A stretch of 64,000 nucleotides of DNA, taken from contig NW_027395283.1 of NCBI RefSeq assembly GCF_027580225.2, positions 6,452,501 to 6,516,500 on the forward strand, read 5' to 3'. This DNA is from Misgurnus anguillicaudatus. Lineage: Eukaryota; Chordata; Actinopteri; Cypriniformes; Cobitidae. Made by a program: the position numbers and the translations under genes. The notes under the pieces are model-generated. The model did no database searches. It was not told the DNA's origin and saw only the letters and a program-made list of their open reading frames with translations. How positions within the stretch are numbered: the first letter of the stretch is position 1; every line of letters starts with the position of its first letter. Positions 1-15,808 of the stretch are shown here, piece by piece.

Positions 1-2039
1 CGGTTGGACCGCGATACATAGAGATTGAAGTGGGTTTCATACCCGAGAAAGTGGTCCGGGACCACGGGGAACATAGCGGTCGGACCGCATAAGAGAAAGT
101 GAAAGTGGTAAGAAAGCCACGAAAAAGTTGAAAAGACTAAGAGAATATTGGTATTTGAAAAAGTTTTATTGTAAGCAATATTGTTAAGTTGTGCTAAAGA
201 ATAGGAATTTGAAACTTACTGAAGATTGTACGGAATGGCTGTTTATTTGTAAATGTGCCCTCTGCTTGCTACCGGTATATTATCAGCTTTACTGTGAGTA
301 TATTTTAATTCAACTTCTTCTTTGGATAAATATTTTTATTGATTTTTGCTGCCAGTGAATTGCAATTCAGTGTTATCTTTTTACGAAATATTTTTAACAA
401 AGTTTTTACTTAATCTTATATCTTAGGTTTTAATTCAATTCTCTATTTTTCTTATTCAATTTTATTATCAGTAATTTTTACTTAATTGTATATCTTAAAT
501 TTTTATTCAATTTTCTATTTCTACGAAGACATTTTATTTTGAGTCAGATTTATGATCAGTACATTTTAATTTAGCATCCTAAAATCTGAGTATTGTCTAT
601 TATTATAAGTAAAATCGTAATTCAGTTTTTATGTGTTCAGTTGTTAATCGTTTTACTGTAAGTGAAATTGGAATAAAATTTCTAGTTTTAAAAGCCGTCG
701 GATTCCGTCTTTAGACAATTTATTGTGGTTGCAATTTACTGTCAGCAAATTTTAACTCAATTTGTAGAAAAGCATATTTTATATCCTGTGTATATTATAT
801 TTTACTATTGTGTGTATTTGGGGGATTTTGTTTAGTATCATTTCATTTACACGGTACAAGTGTAGACGGATCCAGATTTTATTTTTGTTTTATTAGTGTG
901 AATGTGTGATTCTCCGGAGTTGTCTAGTGTTATTTCATGTTTAAAGGAGTAGACGTTTCTGCAGTATATTTTATGTTTATTGTATTTTAGTGTGGATGTT
1001 CATTTTCTTATTTCATTCCGGGGTGTGACTCGGAAAGAAAGAGTGGTTTATTTGTAGTTGATTTTAAAATAAATTGAAATTGAGAATTGATTTCGGTGAA
1101 TTTATTACCAGAAGAGATTGTTTCATATTTAACAGATTCTAAAATAAGGGAGAGAAAACTGTGAACTTTTCAGCTCGTAGCGTAATTTAGTTTCACTTTA
1201 GAAGTCGTGCTCTTATTCTGTTGTTTGTCCGCTACGGGGCTGTAGTTTTACTTTCATTTTGGAAAAATAAAATTGAAGTAGTTATATATTATAGAGTATC
1301 CGTGGTAAAAAGGCGTGCGGAAGAGAGATAAACCCAGTCCGAGATAGACAAGAGACATAAAGTGTTGAAATGTAAAAGATTCAAACGGTTACTTATATCT
1401 AATAGTTTTGATTGCAGTATTGGGACAGGGTTTAATAAAAATCAACCGACTCTGTTTGAAACTCAGCCATGGTTATCATAAAAGTGTACAGTGCCTGTGA
1501 ATTGATTGAGACGCATATTGTATAAATTGTTTTGACTTCTAATAAGAATATTGTAACTTTTAGGAAAAACGTTAGAATATTAGTGAGATCAGTAAAGAGA
1601 TTAGAGAACAAGTGTTTAATATCATTAAATTTGTTGGGCTTTGACAGATTTTAAATTTCAAATTTGACAAGTATTATATAATGAATGTAGTTTGAATTTT
1701 GACAAGAATTACATATTACTGGATTGAATTCGCTTTAAGTTTTGACAACGCCTTGAATCCTCTTTAACCGTCATCGACTGAAGAGTTGAATATTATTATA
1801 TTTTAATTTCAAAAAGAAGTTAACATTACTGAATTTTATTGTCTGGCAAGTATTAAATATTATTAAAGTGAACTTTAATTTTGATAAAGAGGTGATTATT
1901 ATTAATTTGACTAAGAAAACACAGAAAATAATTTTGTGAGAGTCTTTTGTGTATTTACAGAAGGACTGGCATCAAATAACATTGAAAGGAAGAATAAACA
2001 ACACATTCAGGGTAAGAACTACTTCAGTGGGAAAATAAA
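1..2039 (+). other. Long noncoding retroviral leader
   Basis: About 2 kb precede the first gag ATG at 2040, without a convincing ORF. The first 90 bases are GC-rich and carry dyads built on GGTC/GACC: one at 1-11, a 15-base palindrome at 51-65 and a 13-base near-palindrome at 76-88. The rest is very A/T-rich, with many TTTTA/TTCAATTT-like runs. Retroviral leaders usually hold the primer-binding site, the dimerisation palindrome and the packaging signal. The primer-binding site should directly follow the 5' LTR and is not recognisable here, so it is probably just upstream of the window. The leader is unusually long compared with the few hundred bases common in simple retroviruses. Confidence 0.55.
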
Positions 2040-3704
2040 ATGAAAACTCTTAAGGAACGATGGGAGAACAAAGATAGGGAGAAGAAAATTCAGAAATTAA
2101 AAGAAATATATGAGGATTGGAAGCAAACGAAAAGATATGAAGAAAAAAAGGTTAAGTCTGAAAGAAATTAGAATACAGGAAGGAGATGCAAACTGCAACT
2201 TTCTGAGAAAGAATGTACAGGAAGCAGGGTTTGTGTGTAAGAAGAAACATGAGAGGAAATGAAGAGATGCGAAGCTAAGGAGAAAGAGAGAGAGACAGCT
2301 CAGCTGATGAGACAACATAAAGAGCTGGCTGTGCAGGGAGAACAGGTGAAAGCAACACTGGAGAAAGAAATAAGGGAACAATGGAATAGTGTAGTACAGG
2401 AAAGGACATTTCAGCCCAGAGCACAAAGCACCCCAGGAGAAACATTGAGCAGCAGATTTATAACAGTGGATGAGACTGGGAGTCAGATAGAGGTTGAAAA
2501 TCAGGGAACATATCCAGTGGAAATCAGAGGAGAAATGAGGATGGGTAAGAGGATGAGAGAGGAGAGCAAATATAACTCCAATATAAAGACACCAAAGAAA
2601 GAACAGGAAAGAGAAGAACAGGAATATAGGGAACTAGGTCTCATTCGAGGGATACCAAATATGTGCCCACTAGTGGACACAAATGGAAACTTAGAATATA
2701 AACCATGGTCATTCACAGACATGGGAGCTATCCTTGCAAAGTTACCTCATATCACGAGTGGAGGGGGTAAATGGATAGGGAAGGTAATAACTTTGACGCA
2801 GGGCCATACGTTGGCGATAGGAGACCTGAGGGCATTATTGGGACAGGTACTGACTGTAGGACAGATCACGGAAATTGAGCAAGAGGCAGGAACGGTTGGG
2901 ATATATGATGACCACCCATATTGTCAAGTGGCATCAGTTTGGGGAAAGGCCCTGCGAAAGCTGTACCCAGCGCCAGCAGGCACCCTTTATAATATCAAAT
3001 TTTCTCCAAAAGGGGAAGAAACAGCAGCAGCATAACTGAGTCGATGCAAAGGAGAATGGGAAGAGCACACTGGGGCTCATCCACATGCAGACAAAATACA
3101 GGAACACATTTTCAGAGCTGCTGTATTGGAAGGGACTCCTAAATCTGTACAAGATGAAATAAAAGCCAACCCCGATTTACCAGGTGCTGTATGTGAGGTT
3201 TGGGAACGACATTTCCTTCATCACATGTCTAGGGCGAACGAAAAAGAAAAAGTAGGGGAAGTAGAGGAATTGAAAAAACAGTTGCTAAGATTACAGTTGC
3301 AGGAAGCCAGATCTAAAATAAATGAAGAAAAAGGGGAAAAGAAGGATAAACAAATGGTAGTTCAGGAAATGAAAACCCCTCCAAGATACAACAAAGAACA
3401 GGAAGCTGACCCATCAAATGTAGAATGGGAAAGAACCACCCAAAGACCAATATACTACTCCAATAGAGGTAGGGGTGGGGATTACAATAGGGGGAGGGGA
3501 AGAGTACAGTATCAAGAAGGGTGTTTCCGTTGTGGTCGTCCGGGACACTTCACCCGTGATTGTCGGCAACCTGAACTCGGAGCCCAACAGAGACCATCTC
3601 GGGGCAGAGGCCATAACAAACACATGGCCTCTAACGTGGAAAAAGCACCACGACCACACTCCCAGTACCCTTTGTCCATTAGAGGGGAAGGGGAGTGGTA
3701 CTGA
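2040..3704 (+). pseudogene. gag: Retroviral gag (broken)
   Basis: A lysine/glutamate-rich, coiled-coil-like N-terminus opens at ATG 2040 and is cut by a TAG at 2169-2171; further stops follow before the frame reopens at 2259. From 2259 to 3704 one frame runs through with a single internal TAA at 3033-3035. The segment at about 2640-3000 is the capsid-like part (motif RGIPNMCPLVDTNG at its start). From about 3460 an RGRG-rich basic stretch leads into one CCHC zinc knuckle, CFRCGRPGHFTRDC, the nucleocapsid RNA-binding motif. The frame closes at TGA 3702-3704 and protease follows in the same frame, suggesting readthrough expression in the active ancestor. Gag would package genomic RNA and form the particle. 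With several stops it is a pseudogene here. Confidence 0.85.
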
Positions 3705-5909
3705 GACAGCCCACGGAACGACCTCAGCAGGGCTAGGGCGGAACCCTTGCTGACTTTGGAGGTGAACTCACGTCCTGTTGAATTACTGGTGGATACTGGG
3801 GCAACATAATCCACACTGAACTATGAACTTCCAAAAAATCTTATTTCAGACGAAACCACTGAAGTAAGGGGGTTTTCCGGGGCTATAACTAGACTGCCAT
3901 TCTCCAAAGAACTCACAGTGCAGTGCATGAAAAAACAATCACTGACTCACTCTTTTCTGCTGTCATATTCCTCACCGACAAATTTGTTGGGAAGAGACTT
4001 GCTAGTGAAACTTGGAGCTGAAATCCTATGCAGCCTGGAGGGGATTATAGTAACTATGAAAAATGGTATCACCATGAACTGTTCCATCATGACCACAATG
4101 AGAACGCATGGACAATGGTTACTTTCTGCAAACACCTCTCCACAGGGAGCTGACATTTACTGGGGGAGGGTGCTTCTGGGGGACACAGGGGACACCCTGA
4201 ATGATCTGTACTGTCAATAGGAACCTTGGAAATTATCATTAGCGCCATACACTCAGCTAATAGATCCACTTCATGTCACTTTGTTTTATGATAGAACACA
4301 AGAGTACTGGTACCAAGAACAATTTGATAACATCGCAGGAGAACAATGGGAAATTTGTGGGGCAGGAATAATGATAGGCAAAGAGGGAGTGGCAGCTATA
4401 GTAGAACTTACCCCCGAACAGGAACAATGGTATAGAATGAGGGAAGAGGCATCACCCCATATATCATTATTAGTACATCCCCAACACCAAGCTAAAGATC
4501 TAGGACCAATGGTAAAGAAGGGAATAAATTTAAGAGATTGGAGGGAAACCCAACTTCCTGGTGTAAAATATTCACCTAGCTCAGGGTATTATTTGATCAC
4601 ACAAGAAACAAAAGACAGACACTGTAGTGTTGGAACACGAATGGATCACAAGATCGCATGGTAGGGAGAAAAGTGATCATGAAGATGCTGAAACAATGTT
4701 GAAAAGTTTGCCGATCAATTATGGACACAGAGTCCCACAGATGTAGGGTTTTGTAAAAATTACCCAGAAATTTCGTTCGAGCTGACATGTGATGATCCAA
4801 TTTTGGAGGCCTCAATACAAGCACAAACCAAAGGCAGAGGAAGGTATCAAAGATACCAATGAAGGTTTGTTTAACCGCAGGGGTTTTAGAGTATGATGAT
4901 TCCAATTGGAACACACCCATTCTGCCTGTGGAAAAACAAAACACAGGGAAATTCAGAATGGCACATGATTTGAGAACAATCAATCAAATCATTAAAACTA
5001 CAACTTTACCTGTTCCAAACCCATACACTTCTCTGAATTAAATCACTTAAAATCAATCATGGTATACTTGCATCGATCTCGCTAATGCTTTCTTCTGTTA
5101 ACCTCTTGCAGAGCACGTGAGGGACATTGTTTGACCATACTCACCGCACACTCTGTGGTAACTTATGTTAATTAATCATCATTTATAATTTCCACTCTGA
5201 GACAAAGACGGTTGGAAAAAAGTCTGCACAACTAAATTTGGTTTTCACACATGAGGGCATAAACATGGCCTCATATTGGACAGAAGGAGAACCCCATGAC
5301 TGTTGTATGACCGTGGAAAGGGAAGAGAAAATTAGACCAGATTTGTTGACACAAATCATTCCGGAGGGAGTTATGGTGTTTTCAGATGGATGTTGTTTCA
5401 GAGATTCGAGTGGAACACTGAGGTCAGGAATAGGTATTGCAGCACTGCAAGAGGAAGAGATTCAAATATTGAGAGCAGAACCTTTACAGGGACATCAGTC
5501 AGCTCAGAGAGCGTAAATTGTGGCAATGACAAAGGCTTTGGAGTGGGGAGAGGGAAAAATAATTAACATTTTTAGTGACTATGCCTATGAAGTGGGTGCA
5601 GTAGTAACAGAATTACCTAAGTGGAAAAGATATGGTTTTATGGCAGCTAACAACAAACCTATTAAACATCAGGAAGACATCATAGCATTAGCAGCAGCTA
5701 TTTTGAGACCCAACTAGGTGGCGATCATAAAGTGCAAAGGTAATGATAACAGTAACTCAGATGCGGCACAAGGTAACCGGATAGCGGACATGGCAGTAAA
5801 GATAGGTGCAGAGTACGTAACACAGATGGTATTGCAGAATGCCACACAAGAATGTACCACCGACATTTTGCATGATCCAAACATAGCAGTAGAACAAGAT
5901 AAAGCATGA
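3705..5909 (+). pseudogene. pol: Retroviral protease, partial RT and RNase H (broken pol)
   Basis: The aspartic protease core LLVDTGAT is at about 3783-3806, directly followed by a TAA (3807-3809). Further protease sequence with NLLGRDLL lies at about 3980-4003. Another stop is at 4218-4220. An RT fingers segment (motif NTPILPVEKQNTGKFRMAHD) is at about 4909-4970, and RT motif A (CIDLANAFF) at about 5071. The YXDD catalytic box and most of the palm, thumb and connection are missing between about 5110 and 5240. RNase H begins near 5370 with VFSDG. Its catalytic Glu position (AQRA-E in relatives) is a TAA at 5514-5516, and the later GNRIADMA block is at about 5776-5800. The parts are spread over more than one frame. 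The copy could not make reverse transcriptase. Confidence 0.85.
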
Positions 5910-5919
5910 AGAAAAATCC

Positions 5920-6726
5920 ATGTGGCTCCAAAAAGGAACTGTATGGACGCAAACTGGCTGGGTAGGGCATGACGGTAGACCCGTAACTCTGCCCAGCATG
6001 GTAAAACCCCTTCTCACTCAAGCACACACCCCCTCACATGTTGGAATCAAACAACCCGTGTCCAATCTTAACCAGTGGTGGCACCCATACCTGGCTGCTA
6101 CAGTTAAAGAATTTATCGCTAACTGCAGGGTATGCTCCATAAACAATGTACGTGCTGGAGTGAAATGTGCCCCAGGTGTCTTCCCGCCACGGGGACCTGG
6201 TGAGGAAGTGGTTATCGATTACACAGACATGGGGGACAGAGTGGAAGGTAAACGGTATCTTTTGGTTTTCGTGGATGTGTTTTCAGGTTGGCCAGAGGCG
6301 TGGCCCACGGGGAAGGAAGATTCGATTTCGGTGATTAAGTGTTTGATTAACCAATATATTCCGCGTCACGGTTTTCCACGAATTATTAGCTCAGACAACG
6401 GTACACATTTTAAGAATACAGATTTGCAAAAGGTTGAGAGTGCACTGGGATTACGCTTCCGTTTCGGTACCGTATACCATCCTCAATCACAGGGTAAGGT
6501 CGAACGCATGAATCTCACACTGAAAACAAAAATCGCCAAAATCTGTACACAGATGAAAGTGAACTGGGTAACGGCGTTGCCTTTGGCACTTTTGTCTGTA
6601 CGATCGTCCATTAACCGCATGACGTCATTCACACCGTTCGAACTTTTGACAGGTCGCTCATTTCCTGGTCCGTTCAACCCAGTGCACCCTGAACAGATAA
6701 AAATCTCGATCACAGAACATAATTAA
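5920..6726 (+). pseudogene. pol: Retroviral integrase, open over 268 codons
   Basis: This is the best preserved part of the provirus. An HHCC zinc-binding domain (H in AHTPSH, then CRVC) is followed by the catalytic core. The three acidic residues of the DDE triad lie in VIDYTDM, SSDNGTH and GKVERMN, with normal spacing. The core ends in a PFELLTGRSFPGP block as in gamma/epsilon-type integrases. The usual C-terminal SH3-like domain is not recognisable before the stop at 6724-6726. It is shifted by one frame from the RNase H part, so it is no longer joined to the rest of pol. Integrase would insert viral cDNA into host DNA. The downstream neighbour is the macro domain, which is not a standard retroviral part. 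Confidence 0.9.
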
Positions 6727-6730
6727 CCAA

Positions 6731-7321
6731 ATGATATTGTTTCAAGTTTTTCTAAACAGAAAACCATCTCTCATGAATATCCAGATGAATTGGGTGCTCC
6801 TAAGGGATATGGTAAGATTGGACCTGCAGAAACTGCAGGACCAAAAGGGGGAATCCAACACAGGGGAACAACAGCAGGTTGACATTTCCCAACAGAACAC
6901 AAAAGTTACACTCAAAGAACTAAAGGGGGATTATTCAACAGTCCAGAACATAAAGCATTAGCTCACTGCATTAGCAAAGATTGTGCATTTGGAAAAGGAA
7001 TAGCATTGGAATTCAGAAAAAGATATGGAGTAGACAAAGTAGTTTGACAACGGAAAATAGTGGGACAGTGCGCGGTAACACAGGAAGGGCAAAAAGAACA
7101 ATTTTTCAAAAGAGAAAGCCAAAGATTTGCCAAAATACGACACATTGAGACAGGCAATAAAATAACTCAAAAAACACTGTGAAGAACAAAGGGTAAAAAA
7201 GTTGGCTATACCCAGGATTGGGTGTGGTCTGGATAGATTAGAGTGGGAAAAAGTAAGGGATTTAATCAAAGAAGAGTTCAAAAACACTGAAATAACCATT
7301 ACTGTGTATGTAAGGGAATAA
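6731..7321 (+). pseudogene. OARD1/TARG1-like macro domain carried by the retrovirus (broken)
   Basis: Between integrase and the env remnant there is a macro-domain sequence very close to vertebrate OARD1 (TARG1/C6orf130), which removes ADP-ribose from acidic residues and deacylates O-acetyl-ADP-ribose. Visible blocks, in order: LKELKGD (first strand, about 6911), ALAHCISKDC and FGKGIALEF (ADP-ribose-binding loop, about 6955-7015), a SKEK block (7106-7117) at the position of the catalytic lysine, KAKDLPKYDTL (about 7115-7147), and IPRIGCGLDRLEW with the catalytic-type Asp (about 7207-7245). The domain ends TVYVRE then TAA at 7319-7321. Length (about 145 codons from the first strand) fits the 152-residue family. 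It is inactive: a one-base frameshift near 6930, a TGA at 7048-7050, a second frame change near 7100 and a further in-frame stop near 7163. Whether the ancestor made it as a pol extension or a separate protein is not clear. Confidence 0.87.
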
Positions 7322-7339: not shown

Positions 7340-8250
7340 GATTGTGATTGTGAAGTATTTTACTATTTTTCAAATATTTTACATTTTATTTTGAGATTTT
7401 TAAAATATTTTACAGTTTCTATTTCATGATTATCAAATATTTGACACTTTTCTATTTTCAGATTTTAAAGATTTTACATTTGAATATTTTACAACTTCCA
7501 AGTATTTTACAGTTTACTATTTTTGGTGATTTTTAAAGGTGTTACATTTTACCATTTTCATGAGTTTCAAGTATTTCACATGTGACTATTTTTTGAGAAT
7601 TTCAAAGATTTTACATTTTTCTACATATTGTGATTTTCAAGGGTTTTCCAGTTTACAATATTTTATGATTTTCAAAGGACTTACATTTTAATATATCCTT
7701 TTGTGAGCATCTTTGAAAATATTTGATAAAATTCTACAATTTTCATATATCCTTTCAGGAGTATTTTTTAATAATATTGTTTTACATGTTTATGGATTAT
7801 TTTACAAAGGCATTTTGAAGACATTTTACAATTATCTTGAATTAAAATATATTGTGGTATAGATTTGTAGGCTTATCAGTTTACTTTTAACGTGTGTGTT
7901 TTGAAATTATTTTACATCCAGTTTCACTATATTTTACAGCCTTCATCTATATTTTTATAAATGTTTTATAATTCTTTTATTTCTGGGATATATAACATTT
8001 TTATTACGTGACAGTTTTTAGAGGAATATTTACTATATTTTGGTTATATTTGACAGTGTGTAGAGGAAATTCTTTTGCTATATTTTACAGGACGTTTATA
8101 ATAAATGTTCACCAAATTAAAATTTTTCACACTTCTTTTACGATATTCTATATTCTAAGGTTTGTGCCTATCTTCTTAGAATATTTTCAAGCCGAGATAA
8201 GATTTACACGAAATTATATATTTGTGGTAGTGCCTGTTGAAATAAATAAA
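7340..8250 (+). repeat. T-rich degenerate TTTTACA repeats in the env position
   Basis: About 900 bases with strong T bias on the + strand repeat a core like ATTTTACA(G) every 30-45 bases, more than a dozen times (for example near 7350, 7377, 7410, 7470, 7490, 7508, 7790 and 7930). The spacers often contain CTATTTTC or GATTTTCAAA. No reading frame of note is present. In a provirus this stretch should encode the Env surface subunit, so env appears replaced by, or decayed into, a degenerate tandem repeat. Several copies read TTTTACAG, resembling 3' splice acceptors. Confidence 0.6.
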
Positions 8251-8261
8251 TAAACAAAGAA

Positions 8262-8504
8262 ATAAAGTGGCAAAATTCAGGGATTAAGAACCCATGTAAT
8301 AGCTGGATGACAAAATGGTTTGGGCAATACAGCGCACTGATAACCTCATTGATAATGTCTATTGCGGTGGCGGCAGCAATAATAGTAAACTGTGGATGTT
8401 GTTGTATGCCATGTATCAGATCTTTGTGTAACAGGTATATCGTGAAGACGGTGGAGGGAAAGGATCCTCCACCGTATCAGATGCCACTGCTAGGAGGAGG
8501 ATGA
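8262..8504 (+). pseudogene. env: Env transmembrane-subunit C-terminus
   Basis: The open stretch carries a Trp-rich pre-membrane segment (SWMTKWFGQY), a hydrophobic membrane-spanning helix (about 8335-8394), a cysteine cluster CGCCCMPC and a short basic tail ending in LLGGG before TGA at 8502-8504. This matches the end of gamma/epsilon-type retroviral Env: membrane anchor, palmitoylation-type cysteines and cytoplasmic tail. The signal peptide, surface subunit, fusion peptide and heptad repeats are absent upstream. The polypurine tract and 3' LTR follow within 45 bases, the expected position for the end of env. Confidence 0.75.
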
Positions 8505-8545
8505 ACCAGTGGTTGATCTCCTGTAAAGGAGATCAAAAGGGGGAA

Positions 8546-9170
8546 TGAAGGAAAATGAGAACATTTCCCACATCAGTATATCCTTTCATTATTAATAATT
8601 GCATTGCTTCTAATATTATAAAGCAGTTATGAGTATTAATATTTAGCAGTTTATCACATAGTATTGAAATCAGTTATGTTTATGATCGGTCTTATTTGTT
8701 GTGCATGATCAAAGCTTATATATGAATCCATTGCATTTGACTCTAAAAGGTCATGTCTGCAGAATTTTGGAGGCTTGCAGTCTTGTGTGGTATGTATGTA
8801 TGTGTGTTTTTTAACTTTTGCTTTGCAGAGACACCTGGGGAGAAAAACAGGATGTCGGGGCGACAGGGTGAACTAAAGGTCAATGTTGTTTATAGCAGCA
8901 TGAACTTCTGAGACAGAAGTACAACTTTCCATCGAACAGGCCCCCACCCAACTACACATATATATTTTTGGGGTCAGAGGGAAAGGCAGATCAGATCAAC
9001 CGCTCCTCGGGGGACCTGTTTCTGCATTGGTGTTGTGTAAGGACAGGGACAGTTTTGACCCAGAGCTCTGTAATACTTCATTTGAGATACTTATTAAAAA
9101 TAATTTGATTTGAGTTACGTGTCTGATCTCCTCATTCAAAGAACATGCAGGACATTTAAAGTCCAACACA
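8546..9170 (+). repeat. 3' LTR of the retrovirus
   Basis: A purine run (AAAAGGGGGAA, about 8535-8545) ends just before TG at 8546, the usual polypurine tract/LTR junction. The LTR is taken to end with ACA at 9170. A possible TATA element (CTTATATATGAA) is near 8715 and an ATTAAA polyadenylation-type signal at 9093-9098. The 5' partner is outside the window, so the right edge is uncertain by some tens of bases. Confidence 0.6.
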
Positions 9171-9990: not shown

Positions 9991-11643
9991 TTTAATTATT
10001 TAATTTTCATAAGGGTATATTTTGGAAAACTGTAGCCCATAGACCCCAAATAAATAAAATCCAGTAGCCATTCACGCAGTGACGGCCGCGTGGTGACTTC
10101 TTTATCGAGGGCACATGATGCAAATCTCATCACAACATGTAGCCTGTCATGTGTGTGGCATGAATTTAGTGTAGTGTCTTGCAAGTATTTTGTGAGCGCC
10201 TCTTTAATTACAAATCCTTTCGATGTGTGTCCAGCAGGCACGAAGCATGATGCACATGGTTCACATGACGCAACAAACACATATTTTGACATGATGAGCA
10301 ACACACATGACACCCCAAACACAAATTTTTGAATCCTTCACAAGAGAAGTCACCAGCCACCCCTGCACCACACCATAGTTGGTGAAACAAACTGTAAACT
10401 TATTTCTGAAATCTGATTGGTTGATTGAAATGTTACCCCCGGGTCAACATAAAGTTGCCCTGAGGACATCAACCACTTGGCAAAATCAGGAGAGCCTAGT
10501 TGCTCAATGCTCTTCTCATGGACCTAAACTCATGGACTCAGCATGACTCAGCTTGTCTCAATGTTGGCTAAACATTCTAAACACTTTCAGTATTGAAGGT
10601 CTGGCCAGAGCATGATAGAGGCCTTTGGTGTATGGTGATAATTCACTTAGTATCTATCAAAACATAAAATCAGTTCTACATATGAACAAATCCTCTCAGT
10701 ATAGCAAACATTGGAGACAATGTAAATAAAAGATTTTTGTGCAGTTTTGACTGTTAAATTTATTAAAATTACACTCAGACATCCCACCCTACAAAAACTG
10801 ATTGGGAAGGAAGCTCACCAACAAGCCCCCGCAAAAAAAACATACATTTAAAATAATTAAATCATCAATATAAATTATATATTATTTTGTGTTATGTTGT
10901 TTATTAGCCTACTTTAATATGGTTGCTCTTTTAACAGCTATAAAATATATGTACAATTATGAAGGACACCTTAAACTCCTTTGACCCTATATTTATAAAA
11001 AACTACACATATTTAAAATAAGATAAAAAGGAACAAATAAAGATATGATCAAATGTTTTTGTTTTGTTTAAAAGCAGAGGGTTTACACACAGATACACTT
11101 TTATGTACATGAAAAATAAAGTAAATATTGTATTATTTTCCAGTGTTTTTTTTTTGGACACTCTGTCATTTACTGTACATTGTAAATAAACTACTGTACA
11201 GTGGTTTACTGAGCTGAAGAGAGAGGTTGATTGTAAGCCTGCCCACAGTGAAAACTGATTGGTCTAGATATCAGAATACGGTGAATATGGTCTGTCACTT
11301 TCTCACTTTTGCTAATTATGTTAGATCGCTTTAGACTTGCAGGAAAATTTTAACCTGAGCCTGAACCTAACTAATTTTTGCAATGTTTTGTCATCATATT
11401 ACAAATAACATTTTAAATGCACTAATACCCATGCAAGCTTTGGGTAAAAAATGCAAGGCTTCTGTTACATTGATGCAGCCGTCTTTACTTAGAAGTTATC
11501 CTGCAGTCCTTTGGGACTTCATAAACTATTAGGCTACATGTCTTGCTTTTAGCGTCACCATGGTTTGTGAAGTAAGACAGTCTGAAAACATAGGCATAAA
11601 CCTTTCAGGATCCCTGTTTAAAACAGGGCATGAAATGACAATT
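9991..11643. other. Noncoding DNA, nothing recognised
   Basis: A/T-rich sequence without a convincing ORF, RNA gene or defined repeat boundary. Short ORFs around 9996-10390 overlap on both strands and show no protein motif. Confidence 0.5.
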
Positions 11644-14600
11644 ACATATGGGGGTCCATGTCGGGAGCTTGTATGGGACTGATTGTGTTTGCCCATTTTG
11701 GTCTAATATGATTTGACAGAAAGGGTCCCATAAGTGTTTCCTTATTTAGAATCCATATACTCATGACCTATGTGGGTCCCACTTTGGGCCCATATAAGGA
11801 GTCTTTATAGGAATTATTGTGTTTGCCCATGTTGTACCCATATGGTTTGGCCGAAAGGGTCCCAAATGTGTATCCTCATTCAAAACCCATAAACTCATGA
11901 CCTATGTGGGTCCCACTTCAGACCCATATAAGAAGCCTACATGGGAATAATTGTGTTTGCCCATGTTTTACCCATATGGCTTGGCCCAAAGGGTCCCATA
12001 TGTGTTTCCTTATTCAAAACACATATACAGGTGACCTATGTGGGTCCCACTTCTAAACCATATAAGAAGCCTATATGGGAATAATTGTGTTTGCCCATGT
12101 TGTACCCATATGGTTTGGCCAAAAGGGCCCCATGTGCGTTTTCTTATTCAAAAGACATATACAGGTGACCTATGTGGGTCCCACTTTCGGCCCATATAAG
12201 GAGCCTATATGGGAATAATTGTGTTTGCCCATGTTGTACCCATATGGTTTGGCCAAAAGGGCCCCATATGCGTTTCCTTATTCAAAAGACATATACAGGT
12301 GACCTATGTGGGTCCCACTTTCGGCCCATATAAGGAGCCTATATGGGAATTATTGTGTTTGCCCATGTTGTACCCATATGGTTTAGCCAAAAGGGCCCCA
12401 TATGTGTTTCCTTATTCAAAAGACATATACAGGTGACCTATGTGGGTCCCACTTTCGGCCCATATAAGGAGCCTATATGGGAATATTTGTGTTTGCCCAT
12501 GTTGTACCCATATGGTTTGGCCAAAAGGGCCCCATATGTGTTTCCTTATTCAAAAGACATATACAGGTGACCTATGTGGGTCCCACTTTTGGCCCATATA
12601 AGGAGCCTATATGGGAATATTTGTGTTTGCCCATGTTGTACCCATATGGTTTGGCCAAAAGGGCCCCATATGTGTTTCCTTATTCAAAACACATATACAG
12701 GTGACCTATGTGGGTCCCACTTCTAAACCATATAAGAAGCCTATATGGGAATAATTGTGTTTGCCCATGTTGTACCCATATGGTTTGGCCAAAAGGGCCC
12801 CATATGCGTTTTCTTATTCAAAAGACATATACAGGTGACCTATGTGGGTCCCACTTTCGGGCCATATAAGGAGCCTATATGGGAATAATTGTGTTTGCCC
12901 ATGTTGTACCCATATGGTTTGGCCAAAAGGGCCCCATATGCGTTTCCTTATTCAAAAGACATATACAGGTGACCTATGTGGGTCCCACTTTCGGCCCATA
13001 TAAGGAGCCTATATGGGAATTATTGTGTTTGCCCATGTTGTACCCATATGGTTTAGCCAAAAGGGCCCCATATGTGTTTCCTTATTCAAAAGACATATAC
13101 AGGTGACCTATGTGGGTCCCACTTTCGGCCCATATAAGGAGCCTATATGGGAATATTTGTGTTTGCCCATGTTGTACCCATATGGTTTGGCCAAAAGGGC
13201 CCCATATGTGTTTCCTTATTCAAAACACAGACATGTGACCTATGTGGGTCCCACTTTCAGCCCATATAAGGAGCCTATATGGGAATATTTGTGTTTGCCC
13301 ATGTTGTACCCATATGGTTTGGCCAATAGGGTTCCATATGTGTTTCCTTATTCAAAACACATATACAGGTGACCTATGTGGGTCCCACTTTCAGCCCATA
13401 TAAGGAGCCTATATGGGAATATTTGTGTTTGCCCATGTTGTACCCATATGGTTTGGCCAATAGGGTTCCATATGTGTTTCCTTATTCAAAACACATATAC
13501 AGGTGACCTATGTGGGTCCCACTTTCAGCCCATATAAGGAGCCTATATGGGAATATTTCTGTTTGCCCATGTTGTACCCACTTGGTTTGGCCAAAAGGGC
13601 CCCATATGTGTTTCCTTATTCAAAAGACATATACAGGTGACCTATGTGGGTCCCACTTTCGGCCCATGTAAGGAGCCTATTTGGGAATATTTGTGTTTGT
13701 CCATGTTGTAACCATATGGTTTGGCCAATAGGGTTCCATATGTGTTTCCTTATTCAAAACACATATACAGGTGACCTATGTGGGTCCCACTTTCAGCCCA
13801 TATAAGGAGCCTATATGGGAATAATTGTGTTTGCCCATGTTGTACCCATATGGTTTGGCCAAAAGGGCCCCATATGTGTTTCCTTATTCAAAACACAGAC
13901 ATGTGACCTACGTGGGTCCCACTTTCGGCCCATATAAGGAGCCTATATGGGAATAATTGTGTTTGACCATGTTGGACACATATGGTTTGGCCAAAAGGGT
14001 CCCATATGTGTTTCATTATTCAAAACACATATACAGGTGACCTATGTGGGTCCCACTTTGGACCCATATAAGGAACCTATATGGGAATAATTGTGTTTGA
14101 CCATGTTGGACACATATGGTTTGGCCAAAAGGGTCCCATATGTGTTTCCTTATTCAAAACACATATACAGGTGACCTATGTGGGTCCCACTTTGGACCCA
14201 TATAAGGAATCTATATGGGGATAATTGTGTTTGCCCATGTTGTACCCATATGGTTTGGTTAAAAGGGTCCCATATGTGTTTCCTTATTCAAAACACATAT
14301 ACAGGTGACCTATGTGGGTCCCACTTTCAGCCCATATAAGGAGCCTGTATGGGAATAATTGTGTTTGCCCATGTTGTAACCATATGGTTTGGCCAAAAGT
14401 GTCCCATATGTGTTTCCTTATTCAAAAGACATATACAGGTGACCTATGTGGGTCCCACTTTTAGCCCATATAAGGAGCCTGTATGGGAATAATTGTGTTT
14501 GCCCATGTTGTAACCATATGGTTTGGCCAAAAGTGTCCCATATGTGTTTCCTTATTCAAAAGACATATACAGGTGACCTATGTGGGTCCCACTTTTGGCC

Positions 14601-15808
14601 CATATAAGGAGCCTATATGGGAATATTTGTGTTTGCCCATGATGTACCCATATGGTTTGTCAAATAGGGTCCCATGTGGGTTTCCTTATTCAAAACACAT
14701 ATACAGGTGACCTATGTGGGTCCCACTTTCAGCCCATATAAAGAGCCTATATGGGAATAATTGTGTTTGCCCATGTTGAACCCATATGGTTTGGCCAAAA
14801 GGGTCCCATATGTGTTTCCTTATTCAAAACACATATGCAGGTGACCTATGTTGGTCCCACTTTGGGCCCATATAAGGAGCCTATATGGGGATAATTGTGT
14901 TTGCCCATGTTGTACCCATATGGTTTGGCCAAAAGGGTCCCATATGTGTTTCCTTATTCAAAACACATATACAGGTGACCTATGTGGGTCCCACTTTGGG
15001 CCCATATAAGGAGCCTATTTGGGAATAATTGTGTTTGCCCATGTTGTACCCATATGGTTCGGCCAAAAGGGTCCCATATGTGTTTCTTATTCAAATACAT
15101 ATACAGGTGACCTATGTGGGTCCCACTTCGGGCCCATATAAGGAGCCTATATGGGAATAATTGTGTTTGCCCATGTTGTACCCATATGGTTTGGCCAAAA
15201 GGGCCCCATATGAGTTTCCTTATTCAAAACACAGACATGTGACCTACGTGGGTCCCACTTTCGGCCCATATAAGGAGCCTATATGGGAATAATTGTGTTT
15301 GCCCATGTTTTACCCATATGGTTTGGCCAAAAGGGTCCCATATGTGTTTCCTTATTCAAAACACATATATAGGTGACCTATGTGGGTCCCACTTTGGACC
15401 CATATAAGGAACCTATATGGGAATAATTGTGTTTGCCCATGTTGGACCCATATGGTTTGGCCAAAAGGGTCCCATTTGTGTTTCCTTATTCAAATCACAT
15501 ATACTCATAACCTATGTGGGTCCCACTTTGGACCCATATAAGGAACCTATATGGGAATTATTGTGTTAGCCCATTTAAGACCCATATTGGTTGCCCAAGA
15601 GGGCCCCATATGTGTTTCCTATTATGAGCCCATGCCCTCATTTCCCATTAACATCCCAACTAGGACCCATATAGGGAGCCTATGTTTTTTAACCCATGTG
15701 GGGCCTACTACACTAACCCAAGTGAGTCCCATATAAGATGCCCATAATAGGACCATGCCCACTTGGTACCCATGTAGCCCAAGTAAAACCCATGTGGGGC
15801 CCACATAT
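11644..15808. repeat. 134-bp tandem repeat (large minisatellite/satellite array)
   Basis: About 31 tandem copies of a 134-bp unit; identical landmarks recur at 12209, 12343 and 12477. Outer copies are more diverged than inner ones. Inner copies show a higher-order period of five units: the block from about 12050 recurs 670 bases later with the same private variants (ACTTCTAAACC and TGCGTTTTC). Each unit holds dyads: GTGGGTCCCAC, CCATATGG, and CCCATATA/TATATGGG around a 7-base loop. Several CCATAT-like motifs about 33 bases apart suggest an older short sub-repeat. The 75-codon ORFs starting every 134 bases are by-products, because 134 is not a multiple of three and the frame changes each unit. 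Confidence 0.95.

What the first reader, a model, noticed from the sequence alone, without database searches (positions are those of the whole stretch)
6890..7321. Endogenous retrovirus carrying an OARD1/TARG1-like macro domain
Seen: between integrase and the Env tail, translated blocks AHCISKDC, GKGIALEF, a SKEK block and IPRIGCGLDRLEW occur in the order and spacing of vertebrate OARD1. Family knowledge: OARD1 is an ADP-ribosyl-glutamate hydrolase that uses Lys84 and Asp125; macro domains in RNA viruses such as coronaviruses and alphaviruses counter host ADP-ribosylation (PARP) responses. Standard retroviruses do not encode one and I do not know of a described retroviral OARD1 capture. Inference: an ancestor of this provirus acquired host OARD1 mRNA, perhaps to blunt PARP-based antiviral defence. 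The copy is disrupted, so activity must be judged from relatives.
Basis: partly seen in the sequence, partly recalled or inferred. Interest (0 to 1): 0.92.

Follow-up and report, generated by a model that had tools for sequence, protein, structure and literature searches.

The report
Fish retrovirus with TARG1-type macro domain
A fish genome carries a family of endogenous retroviruses whose polymerase protein ends in an enzyme domain related to the host enzyme OARD1/TARG1, which would likely let the virus strip a host-laid mark (ADP-ribose) from its targets; the copy in this window is broken, and macro domains in fish retroviruses had already been reported.

Summary
Three pieces in 6883-7318 follow the order of human OARD1/TARG1 (E 1.5e-8 and 1.2e-13 for the outer two). 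They lie between integrase and Env tail of a provirus that starts 1,558 bases before the window and ends at 9168, with two identical 623-base LTRs and a 4-base target duplication. The window copy is broken, but this is no chance insertion: the same genome gives 150 scored macro matches, 44 of 47 macro loci read have integrase upstream, and 13 database proteins (named ones from four fish species) carry the same domain, several in one frame behind integrase. ERV macros form one clade (98/91) beside vertebrate OARD1. A model of an intact one matches TARG1 (TM up to 0.92); the Lys84 and Asp125 equivalents are kept in 46 and 45 of 46 copies; omega is 0.27. Most likely it is an ADP-ribosyl hydrolase carried by Pol to undo PARP marks; that function is inferred. 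Thirteen of 18 rows of the window's subfamily share a break in the domain, so it spread after the loss. Novelty is limited: a 2016 review credits Basta et al. 2009 with fish ERVs encoding macro domains.

The parts
1..2252 (+). Long AT-rich 5' region of the provirus, between the 5' LTR (outside the window) and gag
   Evidence: Matches the 5' regions of two other copies at 77-98% in pieces; 5' LTR found at G000:C33:6450943-6451565, i.e. 1,558 to 936 bases before the window start
2253..3704 (+). gag region, open apart from one in-frame stop; CCHC zinc knuckle in its second part
   Evidence: stop-to-stop frames; zf-CCHC E 1.4e-5
3810..6726 (+). pol region, broken into several frames; RT and RNase H pieces and integrase recognised, the 5' part not tested
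   Evidence: pieces matched to pol proteins of fish ERVs
5893..6723 (+). Integrase ORF, 277 codons, open
   Evidence: rve E 9.5e-16, Integrase_H2C2 E 1.2e-5; 105 database relatives at E<=1e-10
6883..7044 (+). OARD1-like macro domain, N-terminal piece
   Evidence: phmmer to human OARD1 chains E 1.5e-8
7079..7162 (+). OARD1-like macro domain, middle piece (other frame); holds the Lys84-equivalent
   Evidence: Position in the alignment with 17 other copies; no Pfam hit alone
7166..7318 (+). OARD1-like macro domain, C-terminal piece; holds the Asp125-equivalent
   Evidence: phmmer to human OARD1 chains E 1.2e-13; Pfam Macro E 0.0012
7351..7694 (+). AT-rich imperfect tandem repeat between macro domain and Env tail; part of the element
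   Evidence: matched in sister copies
8250..8501 (+). Env transmembrane/cytoplasmic tail remnant
   Evidence: Translated matches downstream of the macro in 36 of 47 loci; 29-residue match to an ERV protein of Parambassis ranga
8535..8545 (+). Polypurine tract
   Evidence: Sequence just 5' of the 3' LTR
8546..9168 (+). 3' LTR, 623 bases, TG...CA, identical to the 5' LTR outside the window
   Evidence: blastn 623/623 and string identity
9169..9172 (.). 3' copy of the 4-base target-site duplication (CAAT)
   Evidence: Same four bases precede the 5' LTR

Best explanation
This is an endogenous retrovirus, with identical LTRs, of a lineage whose Pol protein ends in an OARD1/TARG1-type macro domain that likely acts as an ADP-ribosyl hydrolase against host PARP marks, and the copy in this window carries that domain in broken form. 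Shown: the provirus anatomy; the presence of the domain between integrase and Env in dozens of sister copies; in-frame fusion to integrase in several relatives; one clade of ERV macros; kept catalytic residues; codon rates of purifying selection. Inferred: because it is part of Pol, the domain would be packaged with reverse transcriptase and integrase and carried into the newly infected cell. There it would remove mono-ADP-ribose from Glu/Asp of viral or host proteins, or from phosphorylated nucleic-acid ends, before or at integration. The window's subfamily lost the domain and still spread, most simply by borrowing Pol from intact relatives (inferred).
For: OARD1 matches of the pieces. Six of 105 integrase relatives carry an OARD1-like stretch C-terminal to the integrase match in the same protein, three of them complete. 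P0229 reads RNase H - H2C2 - rve - macro in one protein. A search with the macro of P0140 gave 18 proteins, 13 of them in the ERV clade, named ones from Puntigrus tetrazona, Triplophysa rosa, Misgurnus anguillicaudatus and Paramisgurnus dabryanus. Own genome: 150 scored matches out of 226 candidates. Of 47 loci read, integrase upstream on the same strand in 44, Env tail downstream in 36. L029, L031 and L059 have the macro in open frames of 1,558, 1,555 and 1,536 codons. ERV macros one clade 98/91, vertebrate OARD1 100/98. Model of P0212 best matched by eight TARG1 chains, TM to target 0.85-0.92. Lys84 46 of 46 and Asp125 45 of 46 family A copies. Gly43, Ile44 and Gly123, whose mutants are inactive in TARG1 (PMC5928194, passage), kept in 46, 45 and 44 of 46 rows. 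Omega 0.271 (28 sequences), 2 delta lnL 98.0 against omega 1. Variants shared between copies lean to third codon positions (26/13/40), singletons do not (34/30/35). TARG1 removes ADP-ribose from Glu/Asp and from RNA and DNA ends (PMC6582358, passages).
Against: No activity, expression or packaging was measured. Thirteen of 18 rows of the window's subfamily share a break in the macro, and the window copy has 623/623 identical LTRs, so the domain is not needed for copying within this genome. The 47 loci are not a random sample: 30 were the best-scoring, 17 picked by me from lower rows. Scoring by macro favours conserved copies; the wider test used 46 of 150 rows and its direct contrast of shared and singleton sites is only borderline (Fisher p 0.048). 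Omega of the macro (0.217 in the six copies with intact integrase) is higher than that of their integrase (0.056), so constraint is weaker than on the core enzyme. Pfam Macro scores of the intact ERV proteins lie just under the curated cut-off, and two of them (P0231, P0234) gave no Macro hit at E 0.001. The model rests on a shallow alignment (12 rows; mean pLDDT 63.9 over the whole protein, higher over most of the macro part).
Confidence: 0.6

Rival explanations
1. The macro domain is part of Pol but serves as an ADP-ribose reader or tether, for example steering integration to PARP-marked chromatin, and not as an eraser.
For: It sits after the integrase C-terminal (GPY/F-like) region, where some retroelements carry targeting domains (recalled); macro domains bind ADP-ribose (recalled); omega is higher than for integrase.
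Against: The catalytic Lys84 and Asp125 equivalents are kept in 46 and 45 of 46 copies, more than binding alone would ask.
Confidence: 0.2
2. A processed OARD1 pseudogene landed by chance inside one provirus.
For: The window copy is intronless and broken; the host gene is matched in three separate stretches, as exons.
Against: Integrase upstream in 44 of 47 macro loci read, Pol fusion in other species, one ERV clade apart from host OARD1, element-wide DNA similarity across macro and flanks.
Confidence: 0.01
3. The domain once helped exogenous infection (immune evasion) but is irrelevant to endogenous spread, so what is seen is a relic of past selection.
For: The window subfamily spread with a broken macro; its LTRs are identical, while a copy with an open macro (C21, L059) shows 96.9% identity over about 540 bases of LTR.
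Against: Family A copies in the same genome show omega near 0.25 for the macro.
Confidence: 0.3
4. Related ERVs captured OARD1 more than once at the same site.
For: Against P0140, macro identity is 51% in the window's family and about 66% in family A, while integrase identity is about 69% and 74%.
Against: All 24 ERV rows form one clade, 98/91 and 99% of 200 bootstrap trees.
Confidence: 0.06

Closest known systems
Fish epsilon-like endogenous retroviruses with macro domain genes (Basta et al. 2009, as cited by Naville and Volff 2016, PMC4977317)
   Same: A fish ERV that encodes a macro domain protein besides gag, pol and env
   Different: Basta et al. could not be read here (not held), so its macro type, position and host species could not be compared. 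OARD1 type, Pol fusion, selection test and the broken recent subfamily are from the present calls
Host OARD1/TARG1 (C6orf130)
   Same: Closest solved relative by sequence and by fold; same Lys and Asp catalytic pair
   Different: Host gene in the same genome lies at G000:C13:15022605-15023461 in separate exon-like stretches; ERV macros form their own clade and are fused to Pol in intact copies
MacroD-type macrodomains of coronaviruses and alphaviruses
   Same: Viral macro domains that reverse ADP-ribosylation
   Different: Another macro branch: in the fold search alphavirus macros appear from rank 28 on, TARG1 at ranks 1-8; the ERV domain is on Pol of a reverse-transcribing virus
Pol-borne dUTPases of ERV-L and some lentiviruses (recalled)
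   Same: An extra enzyme of cellular type carried as a Pol domain; in ERV-L it follows integrase
   Different: Different enzyme and substrate
Crocodilian ERVs with captured KIT-ligand or nectin3 (PMC4299795)
   Different: Separate genes of other function, not a Pol fusion

Membership tests
OARD1/TARG1 macro domains | Closest similarity to OARD1 rather than to MacroD-type macros | tested here: met
   Sequence. Fold of intact relative P0212: ranks 1-8 are TARG1, rank 9 DarG
OARD1/TARG1 macro domains | Catalytic Lys84 and Asp125 equivalents (role recalled and given in the finding; positions set by alignment to the human protein) | tested here: met
   44/46 and 45/46 rows; 46/46 and 45/46. In the window both equivalents are present, in different broken pieces
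OARD1/TARG1 macro domains | ADP-ribosyl-glutamate hydrolase activity | not testable with these tools
   Needs an assay of purified protein
Endogenous retrovirus (provirus) | Two LTRs with TG...CA ends and a short target duplication | tested here: met
   623/623 LTRs; CAAT on both sides
Endogenous retrovirus (provirus) | gag with zinc knuckle, pol with integrase, env | tested here: met
   env only as a tail remnant
Epsilon-like fish retroviruses | RT phylogeny | not tested
   No RT tree built; the RT region of the window is broken
Fish ERVs with macro domains (Basta et al. 2009) | Macro domain gene in a fish ERV | tested here: met
   kinship with Basta's viruses could not be checked
Processed pseudogene of host OARD1 | Absent from sister elements, own target duplications | tested here: not met
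   Present in sister copies at the same place

The most novel reading that the evidence does not exclude
A retroviral Pol carries its own TARG1-type ADP-ribosyl hydrolase, fused behind integrase and kept by selection in a lineage of fish ERVs, so that every incoming particle would deliver an eraser of PARP marks to the viral DNA at the moment of reverse transcription and integration: a counter-defence on the integration complex itself.
Probability: 0.35. Interest if true: 0.75.

Novelty: new member of a known kind. Interest (0 to 1): 0.5.

Why it matters
Viral macro domains that fight PARP signalling are best known from RNA viruses that make no DNA. A hydrolase of the TARG1 branch tied to reverse transcriptase and integrase would suggest that ADP-ribosylation restricts retroviruses at an early step, and gives a testable enzyme and a natural set of lineages with and without it. 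The loss in a recently spread subfamily offers an internal contrast between the needs of infection and of endogenous copying.

Tried and rejected
Processed pseudogene: rejected. Programmed frameshift as the reason for two frames in the window: not favoured, because the four sister copies L059-L062 read the region in one frame and the broken ones share a loss of sequence at the junction. DNA-virus source: 16 viral contigs encode OARD1-like macros, none of the 16 has an integrase, RT, RNase H, gag or env-tail match to the window's pieces at E 0.01; the 8 kept in the second tree form a separate group (98/94), while in the first tree, with 14, one other row (P0236) falls among them. Integrase search of viral contigs found no relative. 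No LTR pair was found inside the window; the 5' LTR lies outside it. The C21 copy's flanks as first fetched showed no LTR pair; a further fetch gave a partial LTR match. Pfam alone is weak on ERV macros. A review of viral macrodomains (PMC7729036) and a 2023 paper (PMC10221186) say nothing of retroviral macros in the passages searched; nor do the zebrafish ERV survey PMC8672886 and PMC2684134 (passages). Searches on which statements about print rest.

Rows dropped or chosen before counts: the second tree left out 10 of the 66 rows of the first for long branches or doubtful labels; the first tree also had the ERV rows as one group (SH-aLRT 91, no bootstrap). The first tree used 11 of 33 stop-free own-genome macros, 22 of the listed 120 OARD1 proteins plus human, and 14 of 16 viral loci. 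The codon models used 28 of the 30 best-scoring family A loci (L038 and L043 did not pass the stop filter). L063, a copy of the broken subfamily, passed the stop filter and is among the 33 rows and the 46 rows, but not in the codon models or trees.

Full report
What is there. Positions 6883-7318 hold three OARD1-like pieces in order on the + strand: an N-terminal piece (6883-7044, E 1.5e-8 to human OARD1 chains), a middle piece (7079-7162, placed by alignment with sister copies) and a C-terminal piece (7166-7318, E 1.2e-13). They are spread over two frames with in-frame stops. Upstream lies an open 277-codon integrase ORF, downstream an AT-rich imperfect repeat and an Env tail remnant.

The element. 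The provirus reaches beyond the window. Its 5' LTR is at G000:C33:6450943-6451565 and its 3' LTR at window 8546-9168; the two are identical over 623 bases, begin TG and end CA, and are flanked by the same four bases. Eleven bases that start two bases after the 5' LTR fit a tRNA-Trp primer site by recall. The genome's contig C7 has the length (41,711,799) given for the contig that encodes P0231 of Misgurnus anguillicaudatus, so the host is very probably the pond loach; this is inference.

Sister copies. A search of the same genome with a related ERV macro gave 150 scored matches out of 226 candidates; some are two pieces of one copy. I read 47 loci (L025-L071): the 30 best-scoring and 17 chosen from lower rows to cover the window's own family. 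Integrase lies upstream on the same strand in 44 of 47, the integrase C-terminal region in 24, and the Env tail downstream in 36, within the 1-2 kb fetched on each side. As a control, the host OARD1 gene (C13) is matched in three separate stretches, as exons, and shows no integrase or env-tail match in 5 kb. The loci read fall into a family A (62-68% identical to the Puntigrus macro) and the window's own family.

Fusion to Pol. In database proteins, 6 of 105 integrase relatives run on into an OARD1-like stretch; 3 of the 6 hold it complete. P0229 reads RNase H, H2C2, rve, macro. In this genome L029, L031 and L059 have the macro in open frames of 1,558, 1,555 and 1,536 codons, and integrase and macro lie in one open frame in L026, L029, L031 and L059. 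So the domain is a C-terminal extension of Pol in intact members. Whether the protease releases it is unknown. I did not read any of these long frames through.

Relationship. Named carriers are Puntigrus tetrazona, Triplophysa rosa, Misgurnus anguillicaudatus and Paramisgurnus dabryanus; the first three were checked to be Cypriniformes, the fourth was not looked up. In a tree of 56 rows, 24 ERV macros form one clade (98/91) and 21 vertebrate OARD1 proteins another (100/98). Holding ERV macros with ostariophysan OARD1 is rejected (p-AU 0.014), with teleost OARD1 not (0.065). One origin of the captured domain is supported; the donor is open. Cypriniform host OARD1 was not in the tree.

Function. 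An intact relative (P0212) folded from a 12-row alignment gives a macro domain whose eight best solved matches are human TARG1 (TM to target 0.85-0.92), then DarG. The Lys84 and Asp125 equivalents are kept in 44 and 45 of 46 rows (13 database, 33 own), and in 46 and 45 of 46 family A copies. Codon models give omega 0.271 for 28 family A macros, 0.217 for the six with intact integrase and 0.246 for the other 22; fixing omega at 1 costs 2 delta lnL of 98.0, 39.7 and 94.0. Integrase in the same six gives 0.056. Because the 30 loci were the best-scoring, I added the next 16 near-complete ones: sites with variants shared between copies fall 26/13/40 on codon positions 1/2/3 (p 0.001 for excess at position 3), sites with singletons 34/30/35 (p 0.37); the contrast between the two is borderline (Fisher p 0.048). 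This is what selection before, and neutrality after, integration would give. That the domain is an active hydrolase, that it is packaged with Pol and that its targets are PARP marks on viral or host factors is inference from TARG1 biochemistry (PMC6582358 and PMC5928194, passages).

The window copy. In 18 aligned rows of the window's family, 13 (the window, L055-L058, L063-L070) share a loss of sequence in the middle of the macro; 5 (L059-L062, L071) do not. Twelve of the 17 sister copies also share a deletion in the integrase that the window copy lacks. The window copy's LTRs are identical, those of another broken copy (C23, L065) 99.1% and 100% over two overlapping parts, and those of the open-macro C21 copy 96.9% over about 540 bases. 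The broken subfamily therefore spread after the break, most simply by using Pol from intact relatives; mixed copies such as L056 and L061 suggest recombination. Only these three LTR pairs were compared. Intact-macro copies exist in the genome.

What is known. Naville and Volff 2016 state that fish epsilon-like ERVs occasionally include open reading frames for CNPase or macro domain proteins, citing Basta et al. 2009 (PMC4977317, passage). Basta et al. is not held. Searches for further reports (listings, some passages) showed none that describes an OARD1-type domain fused to Pol, but most subscription papers are not in that library. The finding is thus a new member of a known kind, with the Pol fusion, type, selection and recent loss as added detail.

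Noticed in passing
P0238 (376 aa, unnamed source): A Ty3/Gypsy-like RNase H protein is followed by an OARD1-like domain that lies outside the fish ERV clade: a possible second, independent capture by a retroelement.
   Followed up: partly
G000:C12:24090963-24195012 (L017-L021, L051): A tandem cluster of macro genes; the one tested (L017) is closest to PARP14. A family A ERV macro (L051, at 24177603) lies inside the cluster. PARP14 is an antiviral, interferon-linked PARP by recall.
   Followed up: partly
window 1-2252: The provirus has about 3.2 kb between the 5' LTR and gag, AT-rich and shared with two other copies; no gene was looked for in it beyond the ORF list.
   Followed up: no
window 7351-7694: AT-rich 31-35-base imperfect repeat between macro and Env tail, matched in sister copies, where env would be expected.
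   Followed up: no
family A loci L028, L032-L047, L049-L054: Copies with decayed, deleted or unfound integrase still have an open macro frame in most cases, omega 0.246; choice of loci by macro score biases this, so it needs an unbiased census.
   Followed up: partly
window 11616-15699: Tandem array, 29 copies at spacing of about 134 bases.
   Followed up: no
P0121, P0127: Fish-ERV-like integrases labelled Aeromonas in metagenome-assembled genomes, probably host DNA contamination.
   Followed up: no
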